NCBI RefSeq assembly: GCF_032854445.1 | Contig: NC_088298.1 | Location: forward strand, 4,212,160-4,276,159 | From: Liolophura sinensis | Lineage: Eukaryota > Mollusca > Polyplacophora > Chitonida > Chitonidae | Reading direction: 5' to 3' | Length of the DNA stretch: 64,000 nt | Program-made: the position numbers and the translations under genes | In this document: positions 4,566 through 58,385 of the stretch, in pieces | Numbering within the stretch: position 1 is the stretch's first letter | Layout: every line of letters starts with the position of its first letter | Notes under the pieces: model-generated | Told to the model about the DNA's origin: nothing | Seen by the model: only the letters and a program-made list of their open reading frames with translations | Databases searched by the model: none

Positions 4566-6317
4566 AATTGTTTAAAATACTATGCACAATTTGTTCACGT
4601 TTTAAAAGACTCTCAGGAGAAAAAATTAAAATCATCTGCGCGTAAAAAAAAACTTCCAATGTTGTGTCTGAAAACTAAAATTTATTTAACTATTAAAGCT
4701 GATGAACATGTAAAAGAGAAACAGTCATCAGTTTTCAATGATGCCTGGAACACAGTCGATATTCTGGGTATTACGTCCAATTCAAATTTAGAATTTCAAA
4801 TTCGTAATTTTCAGGTCGAAGGCAAACATGGGTATCTCAGTCGCACTTTTATTGCAACTGTTCATAAAATAATAAACATGGATGTTTATAGAGTCGCTTT
4901 AACTTGTAAAGTTTCGTATTTCTCTTCTTTTTTATTTGTCCTGCATTTAAAGCCTTACATGTCTGATGCCCCACCTCCCTATCTCATCACTTTCGTTTTA
5001 CGTCTTGTCTTGCAGGTTGTGAACATTACCTCAACAGAAGCGGAACTAACTGGCCACACTTCCTGTCATGTGACCGGCTACCGGATCACTCGTGCTTACA
5101 AATATCAGCTCCAGCAGCGCCCTCTATCGATATAATAATGGCACGTGATCCGATGGACAATGCTGCGACGTCTCAGTATTTGTTGACTCAAACCAACTAC
5201 CGACTTTTTATGACTTTACAAGCGGTCTTTTGTCTATATAGTGCAAAAGTGTTGTAATACAGTGTATATCGTGGATTGGGTTACCTCCCCTTGCTTCACC
5301 ATTAAAATCCCTCTATCGGTCGACTTTGGGCGGTCGATTTAGGGGGAGATCACCCATCAACGTATCATGTGGCGCACATAGACATAGGATATGTGGTTTT
5401 GCATTTTATTGAAGAGATTTTAATTTTTATTCAAAAATGTTGTGTATATTATTGCAATTTGTAAATATTTGGGCACTTTGTGGTCTGTTGAATAGATCAT
5501 CCGCTCTGCAGTTCAGCTATTTTCTCTCACGTTCTCGGTGTCAAGTGATAAAGAAAGTTGCATGAAATAATTTGTGTTAGCCTTGGTCAAGTCGTCGAGT
5601 TTGTAAAGCAAACTCCTCACAGGCGCGTGCTCCACTAGTTCGCTTACACCTCTGCCATCACTAACACATTTCGGACATAAATCTTGACCGACGTCATAGA
5701 GGCCGCATGGCCAGTGTCTACAGTGGTGGCAGAGATGCAAACACACGTATATATAGGTAGTCGCGCAGGCGCTGTCAAAACTGCGAATAGTGGTGGTACC
5801 GGTAGCGAAAAAAAAAAGCCCAGAGGTAGCGGCGTCCGTGCAGGGGAAAAGGTGAGATGACTCCAAACACACTGCTCTGTGCACGACTGCTGAGTGTCAA
5901 AACTCCTCTTGCAGCTGTGGCAAAATTTTCACCAGGTTTTAACAACTTTCATGTTCGTTAAATTTACAGATTTAACCGGTATTTATTTATATTAAAAAGC
6001 CAAAATTTCACCCCCCAAAAAATTTTTTATTCTGCTATGTAGAGAACGACATAATTATAGAATGACAGCAATAAAGCTGTTTTATGAATTGTTTCCAAAA
6101 TCTATGTGCTAAACATCTTTGTATGTAAACATGTGTTACGTTTTTATTCGACAAAGTGTGCATGTAATTTGTTTGCTTACGCTACTAAGCTGGAACTGTG
6201 CAGACAAAAGCGATTAAACAGAGCTGTTGTTTTATTGAACAGAACATGGTATATTGGTTATTAAAGTTTATTAAATATTAACTAAGATCACAGCTGTTGT
6301 TGGTTTTTGTATCGTGT
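4566..6317. other. Intergenic, two doubtful open frames
   Basis: A 158-codon plus frame (4659-5135) and a 123-codon minus frame (5513-5884) are open. The second includes a short Cys/His-rich stretch around CHHCRHWPCGLYDVG. Neither shows a domain I recognise, convincing flanking splice sites, or codon bias distinct from the AT-rich background. They could be exon remnants; I do not call them genes. Confidence 0.35.
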
Positions 6318-22139: not shown

Positions 22140-22470
22140 TGTGTTTGCCCTTGGCTTTGTTCCTGGCCATACAGGCACCTTGGATCAGTACAGTGTGCCC
22201 TGGGCCAGTGCCTTGGGCCAGTACAGAACGCTTTGGGTAAGTGCAGTGTGCCCTGGGCCAAAGCGTCGTACCTTGGGCCAATAAAGCATGCCCTAGGCCA
22301 ATAAAGCGTGCCCTGGGCCTATACAGTGTGCCTTGGGACAATACAGCGTGCACAGGGCCAATACAACACGCACAGGGCCAATACAGCACACACAGGGCCA
22401 ATGCAGTGTGCCTTGGGCCTACACAGCACTCCCTGGGCCAATACCGTGTGCTTTGGGCCAATACGACAGA
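22140..22470 (+). repeat. 20-bp minisatellite of CCAAT boxes
   Basis: Degenerate 20-bp monomers such as GGGCCAATACAGCGTGCCTT. At least seven monomers keep CCAAT on the plus strand and another CCAAT lies at about 22501. The array ends about 200 bases before the first ATG of the zinc-finger gene, so it may lie in its promoter, 5' UTR or a 5' intron. It stays open in several frames without coding meaning. Confidence 0.85.
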
Positions 22471-22665
22471 TCTTGGACGTACATGTGTGAAGTTAGCAAG
22501 GCCAATAGAAAACAACCGTTTAAACATTTTTTTATTTTATTTTTGGTCATAAACAAAGAACAAAAAACAAAAAAAACATCGCTTCTATCATTTCCCAACA
22601 TCTTGATTAATGCAATTAACCTTATTTGCTTTTTTTCTACTTTGAAAGTTTTGAAGAGAACAGAG

Positions 22666-24312
22666 ATGATGGAAACTGAGGGAGCTTTCACACTGGAGGT
22701 TCAGATATATGTGAACACATCCACCCCCAGTCGTATCCAGACGGTCACGCTGTGTAATGTGTTGTCATTTGTCTGCCGATGTCCTACATGCAGTAAGACT
22801 TTCAACTCTCACCTCACACTGAAAGCTCACATGAAAACTCATCTCCAAACCTTCGAAAACATCGAACAAGTTGTCACGGAAACGGAAAAGCTGAAATCAG
22901 CAGAGGAAAACTACACCTGTGTAGCCGCGGTACAAAGCGGAGAGCAGCATTTTATATTCATTACGCAGGATCCAGACATGGAGCAAAATGAGGAGAATGT
23001 AGACGGGTTGGGCAGAGTTCTGCAGCCATCAAAGAAGCCAAGGGTCAAGAAGGATTCTGTCGACCCTACTGGAACTCCGATGAGACGGCATCCTTGTACA
23101 GAGTGTGACTTGTCTTTCCCGACCCGCACAAAGCTGGATATTCACATCCGCACACACACCGGGGAGAAACCGTTCTCTTGTGACACCTGTGGAAAAAGGT
23201 TTGTTACCCGCGGAGAACTGACAGTGCACGTGCGAGTTCACACGGGCGACAAGCCGTACAAGTGCAACCAGTGCGGGACGTTCCACCGCACACGCAGCAG
23301 TCTGCACGGCCACATTCACCGCTACCATCAGGAAAAGGCGTACATGTGCACTGTCTGCGAGAAGAAATTTGCCATTAAAAGCTACTACATGGCTCACATG
23401 AGGATCCATGATGAAAGCAATCCGTTCAAATGCCATTTCTGTGAGAAAGTCTTTGCTTACAAGAGCTTCTTGGACAAACATGTGAAAACACATGGCAGTC
23501 AGGATCCCCCTGCCGCGATGCAGTCACCGATGAAAAAGAGGAAGAAGAAAGAAAGGAAGGGGAAAGGTAAAAAGGCAAAGAAGAACGAGGATTCTGATGA
23601 AGAGGAAAGCGGTATAGTGTCGACGGCAGAGAAAGAGAAAATTGCGGTTGAGGTGTTGCAGCAAGGACGGGCAGCTGGCGATGCTGCGCATCAAGGGAAA
23701 GCTGTGGAAAATGTGGAAATGAATGCATCAGAGCAGGGCATAATGATGACCAATCAAGAGCAAGGTACAAGTCAGGGAACAGCGACTGGTACACAAGTGG
23801 TCATGCCGGGTAATTCGCAGCTACCTCCGCCCCCACATTCCATCAAGCTCTTGGAAGCGGAGACGGGCAAAGAAACTGTGTTTGAATTAGAAACGACCAA
23901 AAATGGAACGTCAGAAACTATATACGTGGCTCTGGCGGAAGCAGATTTGAATGCTGCGGTATCAGGGCAGCCAATGGGTTTGCAAGTAGTCCCAGTGGAT
24001 GAGCAGCAAGCTGTCCAAGCTGTCTTGTCACAGGCAGACTTAGCTGGGCAGAAAATTCAGTTTGTGTCCGATCCAGAAATGGGGATGATGGTGGTGACGG
24101 GTGACATGCCTGGGGTCGTCCTGGGTGATGCCATTCAGTCACAGAGCACCATTCAGACAGTTACCCCGCAAGTGGACGCCATTTTGGGTGGCGCAGGAGT
24201 GCATGTTACGACGGAGACGCAGCCACAGGAAGACGTCACGGCCTCGGAGTATGCAAGGCGTGTCGACGCTGTTGTACAAGAGCTTGAGAAGCGCATCAAC
24301 ACGAGTGAATGA
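22666..24312 (+). CDS. C2H2 zinc-finger protein, probable transcription factor
   Basis: A 548-codon uninterrupted frame. Six C2H2 fingers are visible: residues 39-59, 144-164, 172-192, 200-221 (H-x4-H), 228-248 and 256-276. Fingers 2 to 4 are joined by classical TGEKPF and TGDKPYK linkers, the hallmark of sequence-specific DNA binding. A lysine-rich stretch at about 290-307 is a likely nuclear localisation signal, followed by an acidic patch (SDEEES). The rest (about 320-548) is Gln/Val-rich and low in charge, as in activation regions, ending in a short helical-looking tail. The start is the first of two adjacent ATGs. The frame is open farther upstream through a minisatellite, but that part looks non-coding, and an acceptor-like T-rich stretch ending in GAAAG just before 22650 suggests an upstream exon. 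The orthologue is not identified. Confidence 0.88.
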   Translation: MMETEGAFTLEVQIYVNTSTPSRIQTVTLCNVLSFVCRCPTCSKTFNSHLTLKAHMKTHLQTFENIEQVVTETEKLKSAEENYTCVAAVQSGEQHFIFITQDPDMEQNEENVDGLGRVLQPSKKPRVKKDSVDPTGTPMRRHPCTECDLSFPTRTKLDIHIRTHTGEKPFSCDTCGKRFVTRGELTVHVRVHTGDKPYKCNQCGTFHRTRSSLHGHIHRYHQEKAYMCTVCEKKFAIKSYYMAHMRIHDESNPFKCHFCEKVFAYKSFLDKHVKTHGSQDPPAAMQSPMKKRKKKERKGKGKKAKKNEDSDEEESGIVSTAEKEKIAVEVLQQGRAAGDAAHQGKAVENVEMNASEQGIMMTNQEQGTSQGTATGTQVVMPGNSQLPPPPHSIKLLEAETGKETVFELETTKNGTSETIYVALAEADLNAAVSGQPMGLQVVPVDEQQAVQAVLSQADLAGQKIQFVSDPEMGMMVVTGDMPGVVLGDAIQSQSTIQTVTPQVDAILGGAGVHVTTETQPQEDVTASEYARRVDAVVQELEKRINTSE

Positions 24313-28219: not shown

Positions 28220-28880
28220 AGTAAATGATGGCCGTCAGTTTTAAGGGGTTGAGGAAACCAGAGTGCTTTCTATACACCATCGACCTTTGGCAAACTTTAC
28301 CATGATCAGTTTTAATTTATCGAGGAAAAAGTGCTTGGCATAAACCGACCTTTGGCAAACTTTCCCATGATCAGTTGTAATGGGCTGAGAAAAAAGTGTT
28401 TGGCATAAACCGACCTTTGGCAGACTTTACTATGATCAGTTTTAATTTATCGAGGAAAAAGTGCTTGGCATAAACCGACCTTTGGCAAACTTTCCCATGA
28501 TCAGTTTTATTTATTTATTTATTTATTTATTTGATTGGTGTTTTACGCCGTACTCAAGAATATTTCACTTATACGACGGCGGCCAGCATTATGGTGGGAG
28601 GAAACCGGGCAGAGCCCGGGAGAAACCCACAACCATCCGCAGGTTACTGGAAGACCTTCCCACATACGACCGGAGAGGAAGCCAGCATGAGCTGGACTTG
28701 AACTCACAGCGACCGCATTGGTGAGAGACTCCTGGGTCATTACGCTGCTCTAGCGCGCTAACCGACTGAGCCACGGAGGCCCCGATGATCAATTTTAATT
28801 TATCGAGGAAAAAGTGCTTGGCATACACCGACCTGGCAAACTTTCCCATGATCAGTTTTAACGGGTTGAGGAAACTACCG
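28220..28880. repeat. About 67-bp minisatellite, split by a SINE
   Basis: Units with AAACCGACCTTTGGCAAACT, CCCATGATCAGTTTTAATTT and CGAGGAAAAAGTGCTTGGCA, about five copies, interrupted at 28508-28783. Confidence 0.88.
28508..28783 (-). mobile_element. SINE, full length, inside a minisatellite
   Basis: Complete reverse copy close to the apparent consensus. The flanks ATGATCAGTTTTAT and ATGATCAATTTTAA are an imperfect target-site duplication; alternatively they are simply two adjacent monomers of the array. Confidence 0.88.
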
Positions 28881-36430: not shown

Positions 36431-36652
36431 CTTTTCCACCTCAACTATAACACCATGTTGGACTTTGAGATGATGCCTATAGTAACTCTGTGACATGAAT
36501 CCTGCATCACAGTGAGGACAAGTGAAGAGAGAGTTCGTATGCCCGTGCTGTTCTCGTACGTGGTGCCTTATAGACGACAGGTTAAGGAAAGCCGCCTTGC
36601 AGACAGAACAGACGTGTTTCCTCTCAGCAGGAATTTTACACTTTTCCTCAAG
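36431..36652 (-). CDS. Exon 18: two C2H2 fingers, GC donor
   Basis: 74 codons in phase 0. Finger 1: C15, C18, H31, H36; finger 2: C45, C48, H61, H66, two residues farther apart than in sister exons. The acceptor is CTATTACAG. At the 3' end the frame reads GTG GAA AAG and is followed by GCAAGT, the classic strong GC-type donor. An alternative GT donor nine bases upstream (GAG then GTGGAA) is a poorer match but would also be phase 0. Confidence 0.85.
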
Positions 36653-37752: not shown

Positions 37753-38313
37753 ACTGGTATGCTTCCCGATCAAATTTCACAAGAAAGGATTACACCAACC
37801 AAAAGAGCAAAGTGAAAAAAGTACACATACCACATTATTTGGGAGTCGGAAGCACAAATTCCAAGTTCTTGGAAGTAATGTACGAGCTACTTCTGCAATA
37901 GTTTCCTCTCTGAGCATGTGCACAAGAGTTTGGGGCAATCCTGTGTGAACACACAGAGCCTATAGGCCTACACTTTGTGTCATACCATTCATATATAGTA
38001 AGGACGTGGTCTGACACAAGTCACAATATAACTTCTGCTGGCATGCAGTCATGTTTAAAAACCTCTACACTTGTTATTTCACAGGCTTAACCTTACCTGG
38101 GGGCCTCCGTGGCTCAGTCGGTTAGCGTGCTAGCGCAGCGTAATGACAGCGTAATGTGAGTCAGCGTAATGTGAGTCTCTCACCAATGCGGTCGCTACGA
38201 GTTCAAGTCCAGCTCATGCTGACTTCCTCTCCAGCTGTAAGTGGGAAGGTCCGCTAGCAACCTGCGGATGGTCGTGGGTTTCCCCCGGGCTGTGCCCGGT
38301 TTCCTCCCACCAT
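37753..38313. repeat. 561-bp tandem duplication, first copy
   Basis: Nearly identical to 38314-38874, head to tail, with only a few substitutions and small changes. It includes unique intron DNA plus the 5' part of a SINE. The junction falls in the shared TACTGG. Confidence 0.93.
38101..38313 (+). mobile_element. SINE, 3'-truncated by a tandem duplication
   Basis: Full head and body but no tail: the copy stops at CCTCCCACCAT where the second 561-bp unit starts. It shares an internal stutter of AGCGTAATG units with the intact copy at 38661. Confidence 0.88.
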
Positions 38314-38874
38314 ACTGGTATGCTTCCCGATCAAATTTCACAAGAAAGGATTACACCAACCAAAAGAGCAAAATGAAAAAAGTACACATACCACATTATT
38401 TGGGAGTCGGAAGCACAAATTCCAAGTTCTTGGAAGTAATGTACGAGCTACTTCTGCAATATTTTCCTCTCTGAGCATGTGCACAAGAGTTTGGGGCAAT
38501 CCGGCGTGAGCACACAGAGCCTATAGGCCTACACTTTGTGTCATACCATTCATATATAGTAAGGACGTGGTCTGACACAAGTCACAATATAACTTCTCCT
38601 GGCATGCAGTCATGTTTAAAAACCTCTACACTTGTTATTTCACAGGCTTAACCTTACCTGGGGGCCTCCGTGGCTCAGTCGGTTAGCGTGCTAGCGCAGC
38701 GTAATGACAGCATAATGTGAGTCAGTGTAATGTGAGTCTCTCACCAATGCGGTCGCTGTGAGTTCAAGTCCAGCTCATGCTGGCTTCCTCTCCAGCTGTA
38801 AGTGGGAAGGTCCGCTAGCAACCTGCGGATGGTCGTGGGTTTCCCCCGGGCTCTGCCCGGTTTCCTTCCACCAT
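38314..38874. repeat. 561-bp tandem duplication, second copy
   Basis: Second unit, ending inside the intact SINE. The intact SINE tail lies just beyond, so this right-hand position is the original insertion site and the left unit is the derived one. Confidence 0.93.
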
Positions 38875-38948
38875 AATGCTGGCCGCCGTCGTATAAGTGA
38901 AATATTCTTGAGTACGGCGTAAAACAGCAATCAAATAAATAAATAAAT
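38661..38948 (+). mobile_element. SINE, full length, with target-site duplication
   Basis: Complete copy with an (AAAT)n tail. AACCTTACCTG is present at 38650-38660 and 38949-38959. It lies antisense in the intron between exons 17 and 18. Confidence 0.92.
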
Positions 38949-40069
38949 AACCTTACCTGTTGGTGATACTGGAAACACCATTGTTGCATGCATGGGTGTA
39001 GGGGTACATACACGCAGACTTTCAGGCTTACTGCTCAGCTGCAGCAAGGATGGGGCTAGTAGCTTTAATAAATATTTATCTAATAGACAAAATTAGAAAT
39101 ATCTGCAATGATCCAGATTTATACCTCGTTTCCGACATAACCCGTGCTGATCGAACTGTTTCTAAAATTTTGTAACCCGCTTTATAAACTGAAGAAACTT
39201 TATTACCACTTTTGAACAGTAACACGAGCAAAGACACGGTATTATTGCTGCATGGTTGACTTTTTTTCTTTTTTCCAACAATCTCCGGTACAGCCTTATG
39301 AACTGAAACTTAACTGAACTATTGCTGTGCAATTTTTGTCGCAAAGTTTAGAAAATCCATTTCTTTTCAGTGTTGAATACCAAACTTCATAATGCATCAC
39401 AATAAACATAATAATGACCAGTACCTCCGAGTTTGTTCCAAACTGAACCTAATAAACCGGTAGGAACGCATCAACCACAAACATGTAAATTATCAGATTT
39501 ACTGAATCTTCTATAATAAGCTGATAAATCCGTCAAATTGAGTAACTGTAGATCACCATTAGAAGCCTAACCCTCTAGGCCTTTGATTCCGGGAATTTTC
39601 CTTTCTTACTGCAAAGAAGGCATAAAGGACGCTAATCAAAGAACCATCAATAATTCACATGATTTCCATTTTCAGAAACTTGAATATTACACATGTGCGT
39701 GTATTTTCTGCTTTATTTGTGTCATTTCAAGATCAAGACGCCTGCCAATCCTTTCTTTGTCTTCTTAGTCTGCTTATTTGCCAATATACAACCAGCTTCA
39801 ATGTTCAAAACATTTATTTATTTCCATTTCAACCTAAAACCCCAAACAGAAGCACACAAACTTACAGGCGTTGTCCGCAGATCACCACGAGCTTGACTTA
39901 AGTTTTTATCAGAACACGTGTCCTGGCCGTTCACCTGCGACAGCCTTGAGAGCACTTGCACCAAGGCCTGACCAGTTGGACAGCTCTAATCTCCTGTCAC
40001 ATCAGAGAGCAGCCACCATGCTGTGGGTAACGTACTTTAAACACTTTGAAGCCTCATAGCTGTGCGTCC

Positions 40070-41456
40070 ATCTAGTCTACCTCTGAGGCCTATCATATCA
40101 CTTACTGGTGTTGGTGTAGGGGTCTGAGACCTATCATAACACTTACAGGTGTTGGTGTAGGGGTCGGAGACCTGTGATAACACTAACTGGTGTTGATGTA
40201 GAGGTCTGAGACCTGTGATAACACTTACTGGTGTTGGTGTAGGGGTCGGAGACCTATCATAACACTTACAGGTGGAAGTGTAAGTCTGAGGCCTATCATA
40301 ACACTTACAGGTGTTGGTGTAGGGGTCTGACACCTATCGCAACACTTACCGGTGATGGTGTAGAGGTCTGAGACCTATCATAACACTTGCCAGTGTTAAT
40401 GTAGAGGTCTGAGACCTATCATAACACTTACCTGTGTTGGTGTCGGAGTCTGAGACCTATCATAACACTTACTGGTGTTGGTGTAGGGGTCTGAGACCTA
40501 TCATAACACTTACCAGTGTTGGTGTAGGGGTCTGAGACCTATAATAACACTTACCGATGTTGGTGTAGGGGTCTGAGACCTATTATAACACTTACCGGTG
40601 TTGATGTAGGGGTCTGAGATCTATCATAACACTTACCGGTGTTGATGTAGGGGTACAAGACCTAACATAACAGTAACTGGTGTTAATGTAGGGGTCTGAG
40701 ACCTATCATAACACTTACTGGTGTTGGTGTAGGGGTCTGAGACCTATCATAACACTTACTGGTGTTGGTGTAGGGGTCCGAGGCCTATCATAACACTTAC
40801 CAGTGTTGGTGTAGGGGTCTGAGACCTATCATAACACTTACCGGTGTTGGTGTAGGGGTCTGAGACCTATAATAACACTTACTGGTGTTGATGTTGGGGT
40901 CTGAGACCTGTGATAACACTTACTGGTGTTGGTGTAGGGGTCTGAGACCTGTGATAACACTTACTGGTGTTGGTGTAGGGGTCTGAGACCTATCATAACA
41001 CTTACCGGTGTTGGTGTAGGGGTCGGAGACCTGTGATAACACTTACTGGTGTTGGTGTAGGGGCCCGAGACCTGTGATAACACTTACTGGTGTTGGTGTA
41101 GGGGTCTGAGACCTGTGATAACACTTACTGGTGTTGGTGTAGGGGTCGGAGACCTGTGATAACACTTACTGGTTTTGGTGTAGGGGTCTGAGACCTGTGA
41201 TAACACTTAATGGTGTTGGTGTAGGGGTCCGAGACCTGTGATAACACTTACTGGTGTTGGTGTAGGGGTCTGAGACCTGTGATAACACTTACTGGTGTTG
41301 GTGTAGGGGTCGGAGACCTATTGTAACACTTACCAGTGTTGGTGTAGGGGTCGGAGACCTGTGATAACACTAACTGGTGTTGATGTAGAGGTCTGAGACC
41401 TGTGATAACACTTACTGGTGTTGGTGTAGGGGTCGGAGACCTATCATAACACTTAC
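40070..41456. repeat. 41-bp minisatellite carrying splice-donor copies
   Basis: About 33 head-to-tail monomers of 41 bp. In gene sense (minus strand) each contains ACACCAGTAAGTGTTAT or a close variant, followed by a segment with AGGTCTCAGACCCCTACA. The array begins exactly at the exon 17 donor, whose exon end (CCTACACAG) and intron start (GTAAGTGTTATGATAGGTCT) match the monomer. Confidence 0.95.
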
Positions 41457-41675
41457 CTGTGTAGGGATCTTCCTGACAACACCATGCTGATTCTTGAGGT
41501 GCTGGCAGAGGTAGAGCACTGTGGTAAAGCCAGCTGGACACTCAGAACAGTGATGGTTGATGACTTCGTGCTGAGACAGCTTGTGGGGACGTAGGCTTTT
41601 CTTGCAGAAGAACTTTGCTCCGCAGATGTCACACTCTGTTGGCGACTTCTCATCTGGTTTGCTGGTAGGCGTTTT
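41457..41675 (-). CDS. Exon 17: two C2H2 fingers
   Basis: 73 codons in phase 0, acceptor CTCATTTCAG, donor CAG/GTAAGT. Finger 1: C15, C18, H31, H36; finger 2: C43, C46, H59, H64. Finger 2 shows the Ala-Gly-Phe and Tyr-Leu signature shared with exons 13 to 19. The donor is the first of a long tandem series of near-identical donors. Confidence 0.9.
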
Positions 41676-50505: not shown

Positions 50506-51144
50506 TTTAAGATAACACCCCTAACATTTTGTTAACCATTACTTTCACTGTTATTGGACACAGCCACCAATGCTCACTGTACGCTATAAGCTGTACAGAC
50601 GATCTAATAACTGTATGTGAATATCCCTTTCTTTTTGGAGGTAGAATTTGCTTTCACTAAATTAGATGCAGTCAGATGCAGGGTTGGCCAATTGGAACGT
50701 ACTGATACCGTACTTTGCAATGTCTCCTTGAATTTTTCAGATTTGCTTTTCCATACGCAGCCAGACATTACCATCAGTACAGTTCACAAGAATTTGGCAT
50801 TCCAACAATTTTGCGACATAAGAAAAATATGTAATTGTGTCTGTTATCTGTTGATGGTGAGGAACTGTATAAATCATTCCTGGATCTGCATCCAGATCCA
50901 GAAGCAGGTCAGAATTCAGATCCAGAACAAAAGATCGATCAAGATCCACACCCGCCACTAAATATAAACACCACCACTAAAATATACACTGTAATGGACT
51001 GGCACCAGGACAAAATCCAAGCTGTGCAAAAAATTCATCCAAGTCTTCTTCCATAAAGTTACAGATAGACAAAGACAAATAAACGCGAGCAAAAACTTAA
51101 TCTCCTTGGCAGAGGTAAAGGTAATCAATAAATCAAATCACATT

Positions 51145-51252
51145 TACCTGTCATGTACATCACATTTACCTGTCATGTACATCACGTTTACCTGTTATGT
51201 ACATCACATTTATCTGTCATGTACATCACATTTACCTGTCATGCACATCACC
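51145..51252. repeat. 24-bp intronic array with donor-like motifs
   Basis: About five copies of ACATTTACCTGTCATGTACATC-type units. In gene sense each reads ATGACAGGTAAATGTGATG, which contains a good CAG/GTAAAT donor match. It starts about 55 bases beyond the exon 12 donor. Confidence 0.88.
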
Positions 51253-51307
51253 AAGTCGTTCTATTCAATGTCCCCGTAAGTAGTGATTGTTAGAAATCTT
51301 TTCCTAC

Positions 51308-51514
51308 CTGTGGTGCAGATTCGCACCCTTCCGCATAATGCACGCTGAGTGCCTGGCAGCTGCGGAATCCTGCCCCACACTTCTTACAAATGCGCCTTTT
51401 CTCCTGGAGCAAAGTGTTCTGGTGCCTCAACAGGGAGTTGGCCAACCAGAAGCCACAGTTGCAGATAGGACACACATAGTCAAACTTCTCATCAGCACTC
51501 GAGTCCAATAGGCC
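51308..51514 (-). CDS. Exon 12: one degenerate finger and one C2HC finger
   Basis: 69 codons in phase 0, acceptor TATCTCCAG, donor CAG/GTAGGA. Finger 1 has C15, C18 and H31, but Leu36 where the second His should be. Finger 2 is C43, C46, H59, C64, a C2HC variant. The 28-residue spacing matches the other two-finger exons, so this is a diverged member. The acceptor's pyrimidine tract lies partly in a SINE head. Confidence 0.85.
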
Positions 51515-57424: not shown

Positions 57425-57545
57425 TTTATTTATTTCATTGAAATCTTATGCTGTACTCAAGAATATTTCACTTATACAATGGCCACCAAAAATTATGTTG
57501 AGAGGAAACTTGGCAGAGCCCCTTAGAAATCCACAACCATCACTT
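57425..57545 (-). mobile_element. SINE, 5'-truncated
   Basis: Tail and body with substitutions (GTACTCAAGAATATTTCACT, GAGAGGAAACTTGGCAGAGC). Confidence 0.7.
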
Positions 57546-57559
57546 TACCTCTTGTCTTT

Positions 57560-58385
57560 CAAACACTGATTTGCCTTGCATACTCCAACCAACTATCTAG
57601 CTTTCTGATTTTCTTTCCCCTTGTTTTATCAGGTTGATTGGCCTTGCACACTCCAAAGAGCTCTCTAGCTTTGTGATTTTCTTTCCCTTTGTCTTTCGAA
57701 CACTAATTTGCCTTGCATACCCCAAACAGCTCTCTAGCTTTCTGATTTTCTTTCCCCTTGTTTTATCAGGGTTGAATGGCCTTGCACACTCCAAACAGCT
57801 ACCTAGCTTTAAGATTTGCTTAGCCTTTGTCTTTCGAACACTGATTTGCCTTGCATACCCCAAACAGCTCTCTAGCTTTCTGATTTTCTTTCCCCTTGTT
57901 TTATCAGGGTTGAATGGCCTTGCACACTCCTAACAGCTACCTAGCTTTAAGATTTGCTTAGCCTTTGTCTTTCGAACACTGATTTGCCTTGCATACCCAA
58001 ACAGCTCTCTAGCTTTCTGATTTTCTTTCCCCTTGTTTTATCAGGGTTGAATGGCCTTGCACACTCCAAACAGCTACCTAGCTTTGTGATTTGCTTAGCC
58101 TTTGTCTTTCGAACACTGATTTGCCTTACATACCCCAAACAGCTACCTAGCTTTCTGATTTCTTTCCCCTTGTTTTATCAGGTTGATTGGCCTTGCACAC
58201 TCCAAACAGCTATCTAGCTTTGCAATTTGCTTAGCCTTTGTCTTTCGAACACTAATTTGCCTTGCATGCCCCAAACAGCTATCTAGTTCTGTGATTTGCT
58301 TACCCCTTGTCTATCCAGGACTGATTAGCCTTGCACAACTGAACAGCTATCTAGCTTTGTGATTTGCTTACCCCTTGTCTTTCAG
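57560..58385. repeat. About 69/138-bp minisatellite containing the exon 6 donor
   Basis: Roughly 12 half-units of about 69 bp in two alternating forms (138-bp higher-order unit). In gene sense the units contain AGACAAGGGGTAAGCAAATC or decayed forms (CAAAGGCTAAGC, CAAGGGGAAAGAAAATC) and AGCTAGATAGCTGTT. The array starts inside exon 6, whose last 14 bases and donor form the first monomer's left end. Confidence 0.92.

What the first reader, a model, noticed from the sequence alone, without database searches (positions are those of the whole stretch)
40060..41480. Minisatellite made of about 33 copies of the exon 17 splice donor
The 41-bp array starts exactly at the donor, and every monomer repeats the junction region including AGTAAGTGTTAT, most with CAG-, CCA- or CCG-like bases before GTAAGT. 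The intron thus opens with a long ladder of strong 5' splice sites. They could act as U1 decoys, spread donor choice over 1.4 kb, or protect the real site.
Basis: partly seen in the sequence, partly recalled or inferred. Interest (0 to 1): 0.78.

Follow-up and report, generated by a model that had tools for sequence, protein, structure and literature searches.

The report
Splice-donor minisatellite in a chiton gene
A 41-letter stretch holding the end of a coding piece and the signal that starts an intron has been copied head to tail about 34 times in a chiton zinc-finger gene; arrays of this kind were described before in lancelets, and it looks like a tolerated by-product of repeat growth rather than a splicing device.

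Summary
The array is real: window 40082-41456, 41 bp x 33.6 copies. Read on the minus strand it begins at the donor of a C2H2 zinc-finger exon. Twelve of the last 14 exon bases align to the unit (11 match), and 29 of 34 in-register sites read GTAAGT. The ladder is weaker than claimed. The exon-proximal CAG|GTAAGT has the joint top score; of 33 downstream copies, 24 score below the lower quartile of 78 donors mapped in this genome and 1 equals the real site. None of the 33 would keep the reading frame. The genome matches the chiton Liolophura japonica. The sampled gene regions are rich in minisatellites, and other arrays straddle donors in CCT, myosin and dynein genes. A neutral model, in which a duplicated unit straddles a donor by chance, predicts 1.8 donor-edge arrays outside the window; 5 were seen (p 0.024). 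Tandem repeats over exon-intron boundaries are known from amphioxus as 'mirages', with splicing reported as normal. Verdict: a new member of a known kind, in a mollusc. Most likely it is a passive intronic expansion, with the first donor used. No RNA data were available.

The parts
41457..41675 (-). Coding exon with C2H2 zinc-finger sequence, phase-0 donor; AGATCCCTACAC, the 12 bases that end 2 bases before its donor, match the repeat unit
   Evidence: Sequence; Pfam zf-C2H2_4 4.2e-06; tail-to-unit alignment 11 of 12 matches, score 20 against at most 16 for 78 other exon tails
41456..41456 (-). Exon-proximal splice donor CAG|GTAAGT (first intron base)
   Evidence: PWM score 13.14: above 77 of 78 other donors and equal to one, in L039
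40082..41456 (-). 41-bp minisatellite, 33.6 copies, nearly each with a donor-like site; intronic
   Evidence: TRF; register cut
40431..40431 (-). The single downstream copy with a full CAG|GTAAGT
41334..41456 (-). Units 1-3, repeated almost exactly as units 30-32
   Evidence: 0, 0 and 2 mismatches
40147..40269 (-). Units 30-32, near-copy of units 1-3 at the far end of the array
36431..36652 (-). Next coding exon, to which the exon at 41457-41675 is inferred to splice in phase 0
   Evidence: Pfam zf-C2H2 8.9e-06

Best explanation
This is a 'mirage'-type minisatellite. A short stretch covering roughly the last 14 bases of a coding exon (about 20 bases in the present unit) and the first 21 or so of its intron was tandemly duplicated, then grew by slippage or unequal exchange to about 34 units. 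It was tolerated because the first copy still carries the whole exon and a top-scoring donor, so everything downstream is removed as intron. The spliceosome most likely uses only the exon-proximal CAG|GTAAGT: it has the joint top score, lies nearest the exon, and every other choice meets a stop codon. Shown here: anatomy, shared exon/unit sequence, donor ranking, loss of frame, similar arrays at other donors. Inferred: order of events (exon to unit, or unit to exon), mutational mechanism, actual donor use.
For: Exon tail and unit match over 12 bases (11 of 12), better than any of 78 other exon tails. Real donor has the joint top score; 24 of 33 copies fall below the lower quartile (8.1) of 78 donors and 1 of 33 equals the real site. 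0 of 33 downstream donors keep an open frame: 32 meet a TAA 42 nt past the exon, the first shifts frame and stops 123 nt past it. Similar layout at L004 (109-bp unit, array edge 93 bases inside the exon), L005, L019 and L039 and at 58.38 kb in this gene. Tandem arrays cover 16.1% of 252,872 bases sampled, window included, and chance straddling predicts 1.78 of 21 arrays outside the window against 5 seen. Local origin: only this locus matched in the genome search. Units 1-3 recur as 30-32 with 0, 0 and 2 mismatches, a sign of array turnover. Amphioxus mirages are reported not to disturb regular splicing (passages of PMC3087553, and PMC3902484).
Against: Donor-edge arrays exceed the neutral straddling expectation (5 vs 1.78, p 0.024; with the window 7 vs 2.05, p 0.0024, but the window was chosen because of its array). 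If arrays may lie only inside introns the excess is much larger at donors (7 vs 0.35 among 22 array-bearing introns, p 2e-4, the smallest value 5000 placements can give) and present at acceptors (3 vs 0.35, p 0.0044). Nine of 33 copies are as strong as a median real donor and one equals the real site, so some use cannot be excluded. No RNA evidence was available.
Confidence: 0.82

Rival explanations
1. The copies act as U1-binding decoys or a U1 sink that protects the donor or the transcript, so array length tunes splicing or premature polyadenylation of this gene.
For: 29 of 34 sites read GTAAGT and 9 of 33 copies score at or above the median real donor. At other boundary arrays copies can be strong: at or above the real score in 3 of 6 (L004), 10 of 11 (L005) and 1 of 1 (L039).
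Against: Most copies here (19 of 34 CCA) lack the -1 G and -2 A. Donor columns are not unusually conserved (10 of 41 windows, the donor's own included, as conserved; 32 units). Triplets of GTAAGT in tandem spacing (9,467) are rarer than those of three hexamers with the same letters (20,008, 20,736 and 24,180; not normalised for hexamer frequency). Amphioxus cases are reported without disturbed splicing.
Confidence: 0.08
2. Downstream donors are used and yield unproductive transcripts, so the array is a poison-isoform (NMD) regulator of the zinc-finger gene.
For: Every downstream choice brings a stop codon: 32 of 33 meet a TAA 42 nt past the exon end, the other one at 123 nt.
Against: The in-frame TAA is simply part of GTAAGT in this frame; the exon-proximal donor has the joint top score of the donors mapped. 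No RNA data.
Confidence: 0.06
3. Minisatellites in this genome arise preferentially at 5' splice sites because of a mutational hotspot at donors (for example transcription-linked breaks), beyond neutral straddling.
For: 5 of 21 non-window arrays at the donor edge vs 1.78 expected, p 0.024. Acceptor edges: 3 of 21, p 0.26.
Against: With arrays of period 20 or more and length 100 or more: 4 of 13 vs 1.51, p 0.051. One of the five (L038) is a 42-bp AT-rich array. Donor-like units are not clearly sense-biased (8 sense vs 5 antisense of 62 arrays in loci with a kept junction).
Confidence: 0.2

Closest known systems
Amphioxus 'mirages' (Adh3; globins BflGb6 and BflGb9; also PGBD5 and troponin C)
   Same: Minisatellite-like tandem duplications spanning an exon-intron boundary; many but not all units contain AG/GT splice signals; either boundary can be affected; regular splicing reported (passages of PMC3087553; PMC3902484).
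   Different: Different phylum (chiton mollusc). About 34 copies here, against 6 and 3 units in two BflGb6 haplotypes. Splicing was checked there by RT-PCR and is untested here. Length instability, somatic at Adh3, was reported there and is untested here.
Internal tandem repeats at exon-intron boundaries in human segmental duplications
   Same: Minisatellite growth at an exon-intron boundary; the paper says it may cause formation of novel introns (passages of PMC2812944).
   Different: Human paralogs, with half of the variable repeats in coding sequence; here an existing intron is lengthened.
Intron gain by tandem duplication of AGGT proto-splice sites
   Same: Duplication of sequence holding a splice signal (discussed in a passage of PMC3087553; other papers seen only in the search listing).
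   Different: The array lies in one inferred intron; no new intron was identified. AGGT occurs 32 times in the array, but acceptors there were not scored.

Membership tests
[quoted passage not shown]
   TRF array starts at donor 41456; 12 of the last 14 exon bases align to the unit, 11 match. The TRF edge itself does not enter the exon.
Mirage (minisatellite over an exon-intron boundary) | Units carry the splice signal | tested here: met
   32 of 34 positions GT, 29 of 34 GTAAGT
Mirage (minisatellite over an exon-intron boundary) | Regular mRNA splicing is not disturbed | not testable with these tools
   No RNA data; only the frame consequence was computed
Mirage (minisatellite over an exon-intron boundary) | Length instability between alleles or cells | not testable with these tools
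   One assembly only; units 1-3 recurring as 30-32 suggests past turnover
Recursive (ratcheting) splice sites | Acceptor AG directly followed by donor GT in each unit | tested here: inconclusive
   At the GTAAGT position only 2 of 34 sites read AG|GT. Elsewhere in the array AGGT occurs 32 times, 29 of them as AGGTCT, a poor donor sequence; acceptor strength was not scored.
Dispersed satellite or transposon | Related copies elsewhere in the genome | tested here: not met
   8 matches in the genome, all in this array; the tool states that its counts are lower bounds and that withheld stretches read N

The most novel reading that the evidence does not exclude
In this chiton, 5' splice sites are preferred birthplaces of minisatellites, more than chance straddling allows, so a sizeable share of intron growth proceeds by copying exon-intron junctions and leaves many genes with ladders of decoy donors that the spliceosome must ignore by exon proximity.
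Probability: 0.2. Interest if true: 0.6.

Novelty: new member of a known kind. Interest (0 to 1): 0.33.

Why it matters
Such arrays are natural experiments on donor choice: up to 33 copies of a donor, some as good as the real one, lie just downstream of it. If RNA shows only the first is used, it shows how strongly exon proximity governs the choice. Finding mirage-like arrays in several genes of a mollusc suggests that the amphioxus 'mirages' may be a general outcome of a minisatellite-rich genome rather than a lancelet peculiarity.

Tried and rejected
Genome-wide donor amplification: triplets of GTAAGT at 20-50 base gaps give 9,467 hits; the reversed hexamer TGAATG gives 20,008, AGTGTA 20,736 and ATGTGA 24,180. 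So there is no excess; the counts are of overlapping triplets and were not normalised for hexamer frequency.

Selection on the donor columns: not supported (10 of 41 six-column windows, the donor's own included, as conserved as GTAAGT, over 32 units). General weakening of decoys: not general. Copies at or above the real score are 10 of 11 in L005, 1 of 1 in L039, 3 of 6 in L004, 1 of 17 in L019 and 1 of 33 here.

Sense bias of donor-like units: 8 sense vs 5 antisense of 62 arrays in loci with a kept junction, window left out, not convincing.

Molluscan precedent: the cone-snail intron paper listed was checked by passages only; its one 'minisatellite' hit is in the reference list and the passages describe microsatellites.

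Rows dropped before counts: 47 of 50 CCT rows, 60 of 81 myosin rows and 80 of 86 dynein rows were given to the junction finder (my count of the lists). Of CCT and myosin exon pairs, 45 gave a junction, 32 were skipped and 4 gave none (counted by me from the printed lines); 35 passed the score filter. For dynein 52 were found, 8 skipped, 3 none, 36 kept. Eight window introns were picked by hand. The window introns upstream of the exon ending at 51308, including the 58.38 kb boundary array, and the plus-strand gene were not in the counts.

Full report
What is there. TRF finds a 41-bp array at 40082-41456 with 33.6 copies and 89% matches. The gene runs on the minus strand. The exon 41675-41457 encodes C2H2 zinc-finger sequence (Pfam zf-C2H2_4, 4.2e-06) and ends ...CCCTACACAG|GTAAGTGTTATG, with the first intron base at 41456. 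The array begins at that base. Cutting the array in 41-base register gives 34 donor positions, one unit being 39 bases: 29 read GTAAGT, 32 have GT, 1 GC and 1 TT. The exon end shares sequence with the repeat: AGATCCCTACAC, which stops 2 bases before the donor, matches the unit in 11 of 12 positions. That alignment scores 20, while the best of 78 other exon tails scores 16.

Genome and gene. G000 has 632 contigs and 609,464,459 bases, and its contig lengths 96,433,062, 28,395,274, 27,489,247 and 25,057,479 equal those printed for the chiton Liolophura japonica, whose assembly has 632 scaffolds, 609,495,693 bases and HiFi reads averaging 8,347 bp (passages of PMC11068029). The reads are on average longer than the array, so its length is plausible.

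How strong are the copies? A position weight matrix from 78 donors mapped in this genome (the real site left out) gives the real donor CAGGTAAGT 13.14; 77 of the 78 score lower and one, in L039, is identical. Fifteen copies read CCAGTAAGT, which scores 5.41, below the lower quartile of real donors (8.1). Nine of 33 copies reach the median (9.1), and one, at 40431, equals the real site. So the ladder exists but most rungs are weak, because the exon-side bases of the unit are mostly CCA rather than CAG.

What would their use do? Extending the exon to any of the 33 downstream donors and joining the next exon (225 bases of it) in phase 0 always meets a stop: 32 meet a TAA 42 nt beyond the exon end (the TAA lies in the second unit's GTAAGT), and the first shifts the frame and stops 123 nt beyond it. 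No full-length coding isoform can come from the array in this model. The phase-0 junction to the exon at 36652 is inferred from sequence, not from RNA.

How the array behaves. Units 1-3 recur as units 30-32 with 0, 0 and 2 mismatches, which points to exchange within the array. Columns of GTAAGT are conserved but not exceptionally: 10 of 41 six-column windows, the donor's own included, are as conserved (32 units). The whole-genome search with a 242-base piece found 8 matches, all inside this array, so it looks like a local product.

Is it special in this genome? I mapped exon junctions in CCT, myosin-head and dynein genes from Pfam matches, fetched 43 loci and ran TRF. Tandem arrays (period 10 or more) cover 16.1% of the first 252,872 bases, window included. 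Of 79 introns kept (8 from the window), 22 hold arrays and 7 of these have an array edge within 5 bases of the donor or over it, 3 likewise at the acceptor. If arrays could only lie inside introns, 0.35 would be expected at each end (p 2e-4 at donors, 0.0044 at acceptors). A fairer null lets a duplicated unit straddle the boundary by chance: outside the window 1.78 of 21 arrays are expected at the donor, 5 are seen (p 0.024), and 3 at the acceptor (p 0.26). With the stricter cut (period at least 20, length at least 100) it is 4 of 13 against 1.51 at donors (p 0.051). So there are other boundary arrays, and a good part of their number is what a minisatellite-rich genome gives. A modest donor excess remains and is not explained. 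One of the five (L038) is a short AT-rich array.

Other examples. In L004 (a CCT gene) the array edge lies 93 bases inside the exon and the unit is 109 bp, so coding sequence and donor are copied together; L005, L019 and L039 also start inside the exon. Copies at or above the real donor's score: L005 10 of 11, L004 3 of 6, L039 1 of 1, L019 1 of 17. In the window gene itself the exon near 58.4 kb ends GACAAGGGGTAAGC and the array at 57543-58383 repeats that junction.

Known kind. Tandem repeats spanning exon-intron boundaries were named 'mirages' in amphioxus Adh3 and found in globin genes; the authors report that the data suggest no interference with regular splicing, and that mirages vary in length (passages of PMC3087553; reference 68 of that paper, PMC117041, is not held). 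PGBD5 and troponin C are further lancelet cases (passages of PMC3902484). I found no report for molluscs in the searches, nor in passages of the cone-snail intron paper PMC3862624; that covers only the held library.

Mechanism. Most likely the array is passive: a junction-straddling duplication, grown by slippage or unequal exchange, removed as intron because the first copy keeps the exon and a top-scoring donor. Hairpin-forming units may help growth: as single-stranded DNA the first four units fold better than 199 of 200 shuffles (z -3.06), and GGTCTCAGACC occurs 18 times; the link to growth is an inference. Direct evidence on donor use is missing.

Noticed in passing
window 57543-58383 (-): A second boundary array in the same gene: 69/137-bp units repeat the exon end and donor GACAAGGGGTAAGC directly after the zinc-finger exon near 58.4 kb; copies at the far end are decayed.
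   Followed up: partly
window 36430 (-): The next exon appears to use a GC donor (AAG|GCAAGT), with a short 10-bp array 4 bases after it and a 26/52-bp array further on.
   Followed up: partly
window 51137-51251 (-): A 22-bp array with units like ACAGGTAAATGTG, 56 bases after the donor at 51307.
   Followed up: no
L004, donor at 5263 of the reverse strand: A CCT gene with a 109-bp unit copying about 93 bases of coding exon together with the donor.
   Followed up: partly
L015 near 2697 (+) and L018 near 903 (+): Arrays overlapping the acceptor side of myosin-head exons (units with TGTTTGTAGGTTTGA in L015).
   Followed up: partly
window 38100-38900 and 28500-28790: Dispersed repeats with a tRNA-like stretch and the tail ATTCTTGAGTACGGCGTAAAACACCAATCAAATAAATAAAT, probably SINEs (recalled type, not tested; sequence).
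   Followed up: no
window 22297-24312 (+): A 671-residue open frame with several C2H2 patterns: apparently a second zinc-finger gene on the other strand.
   Followed up: no
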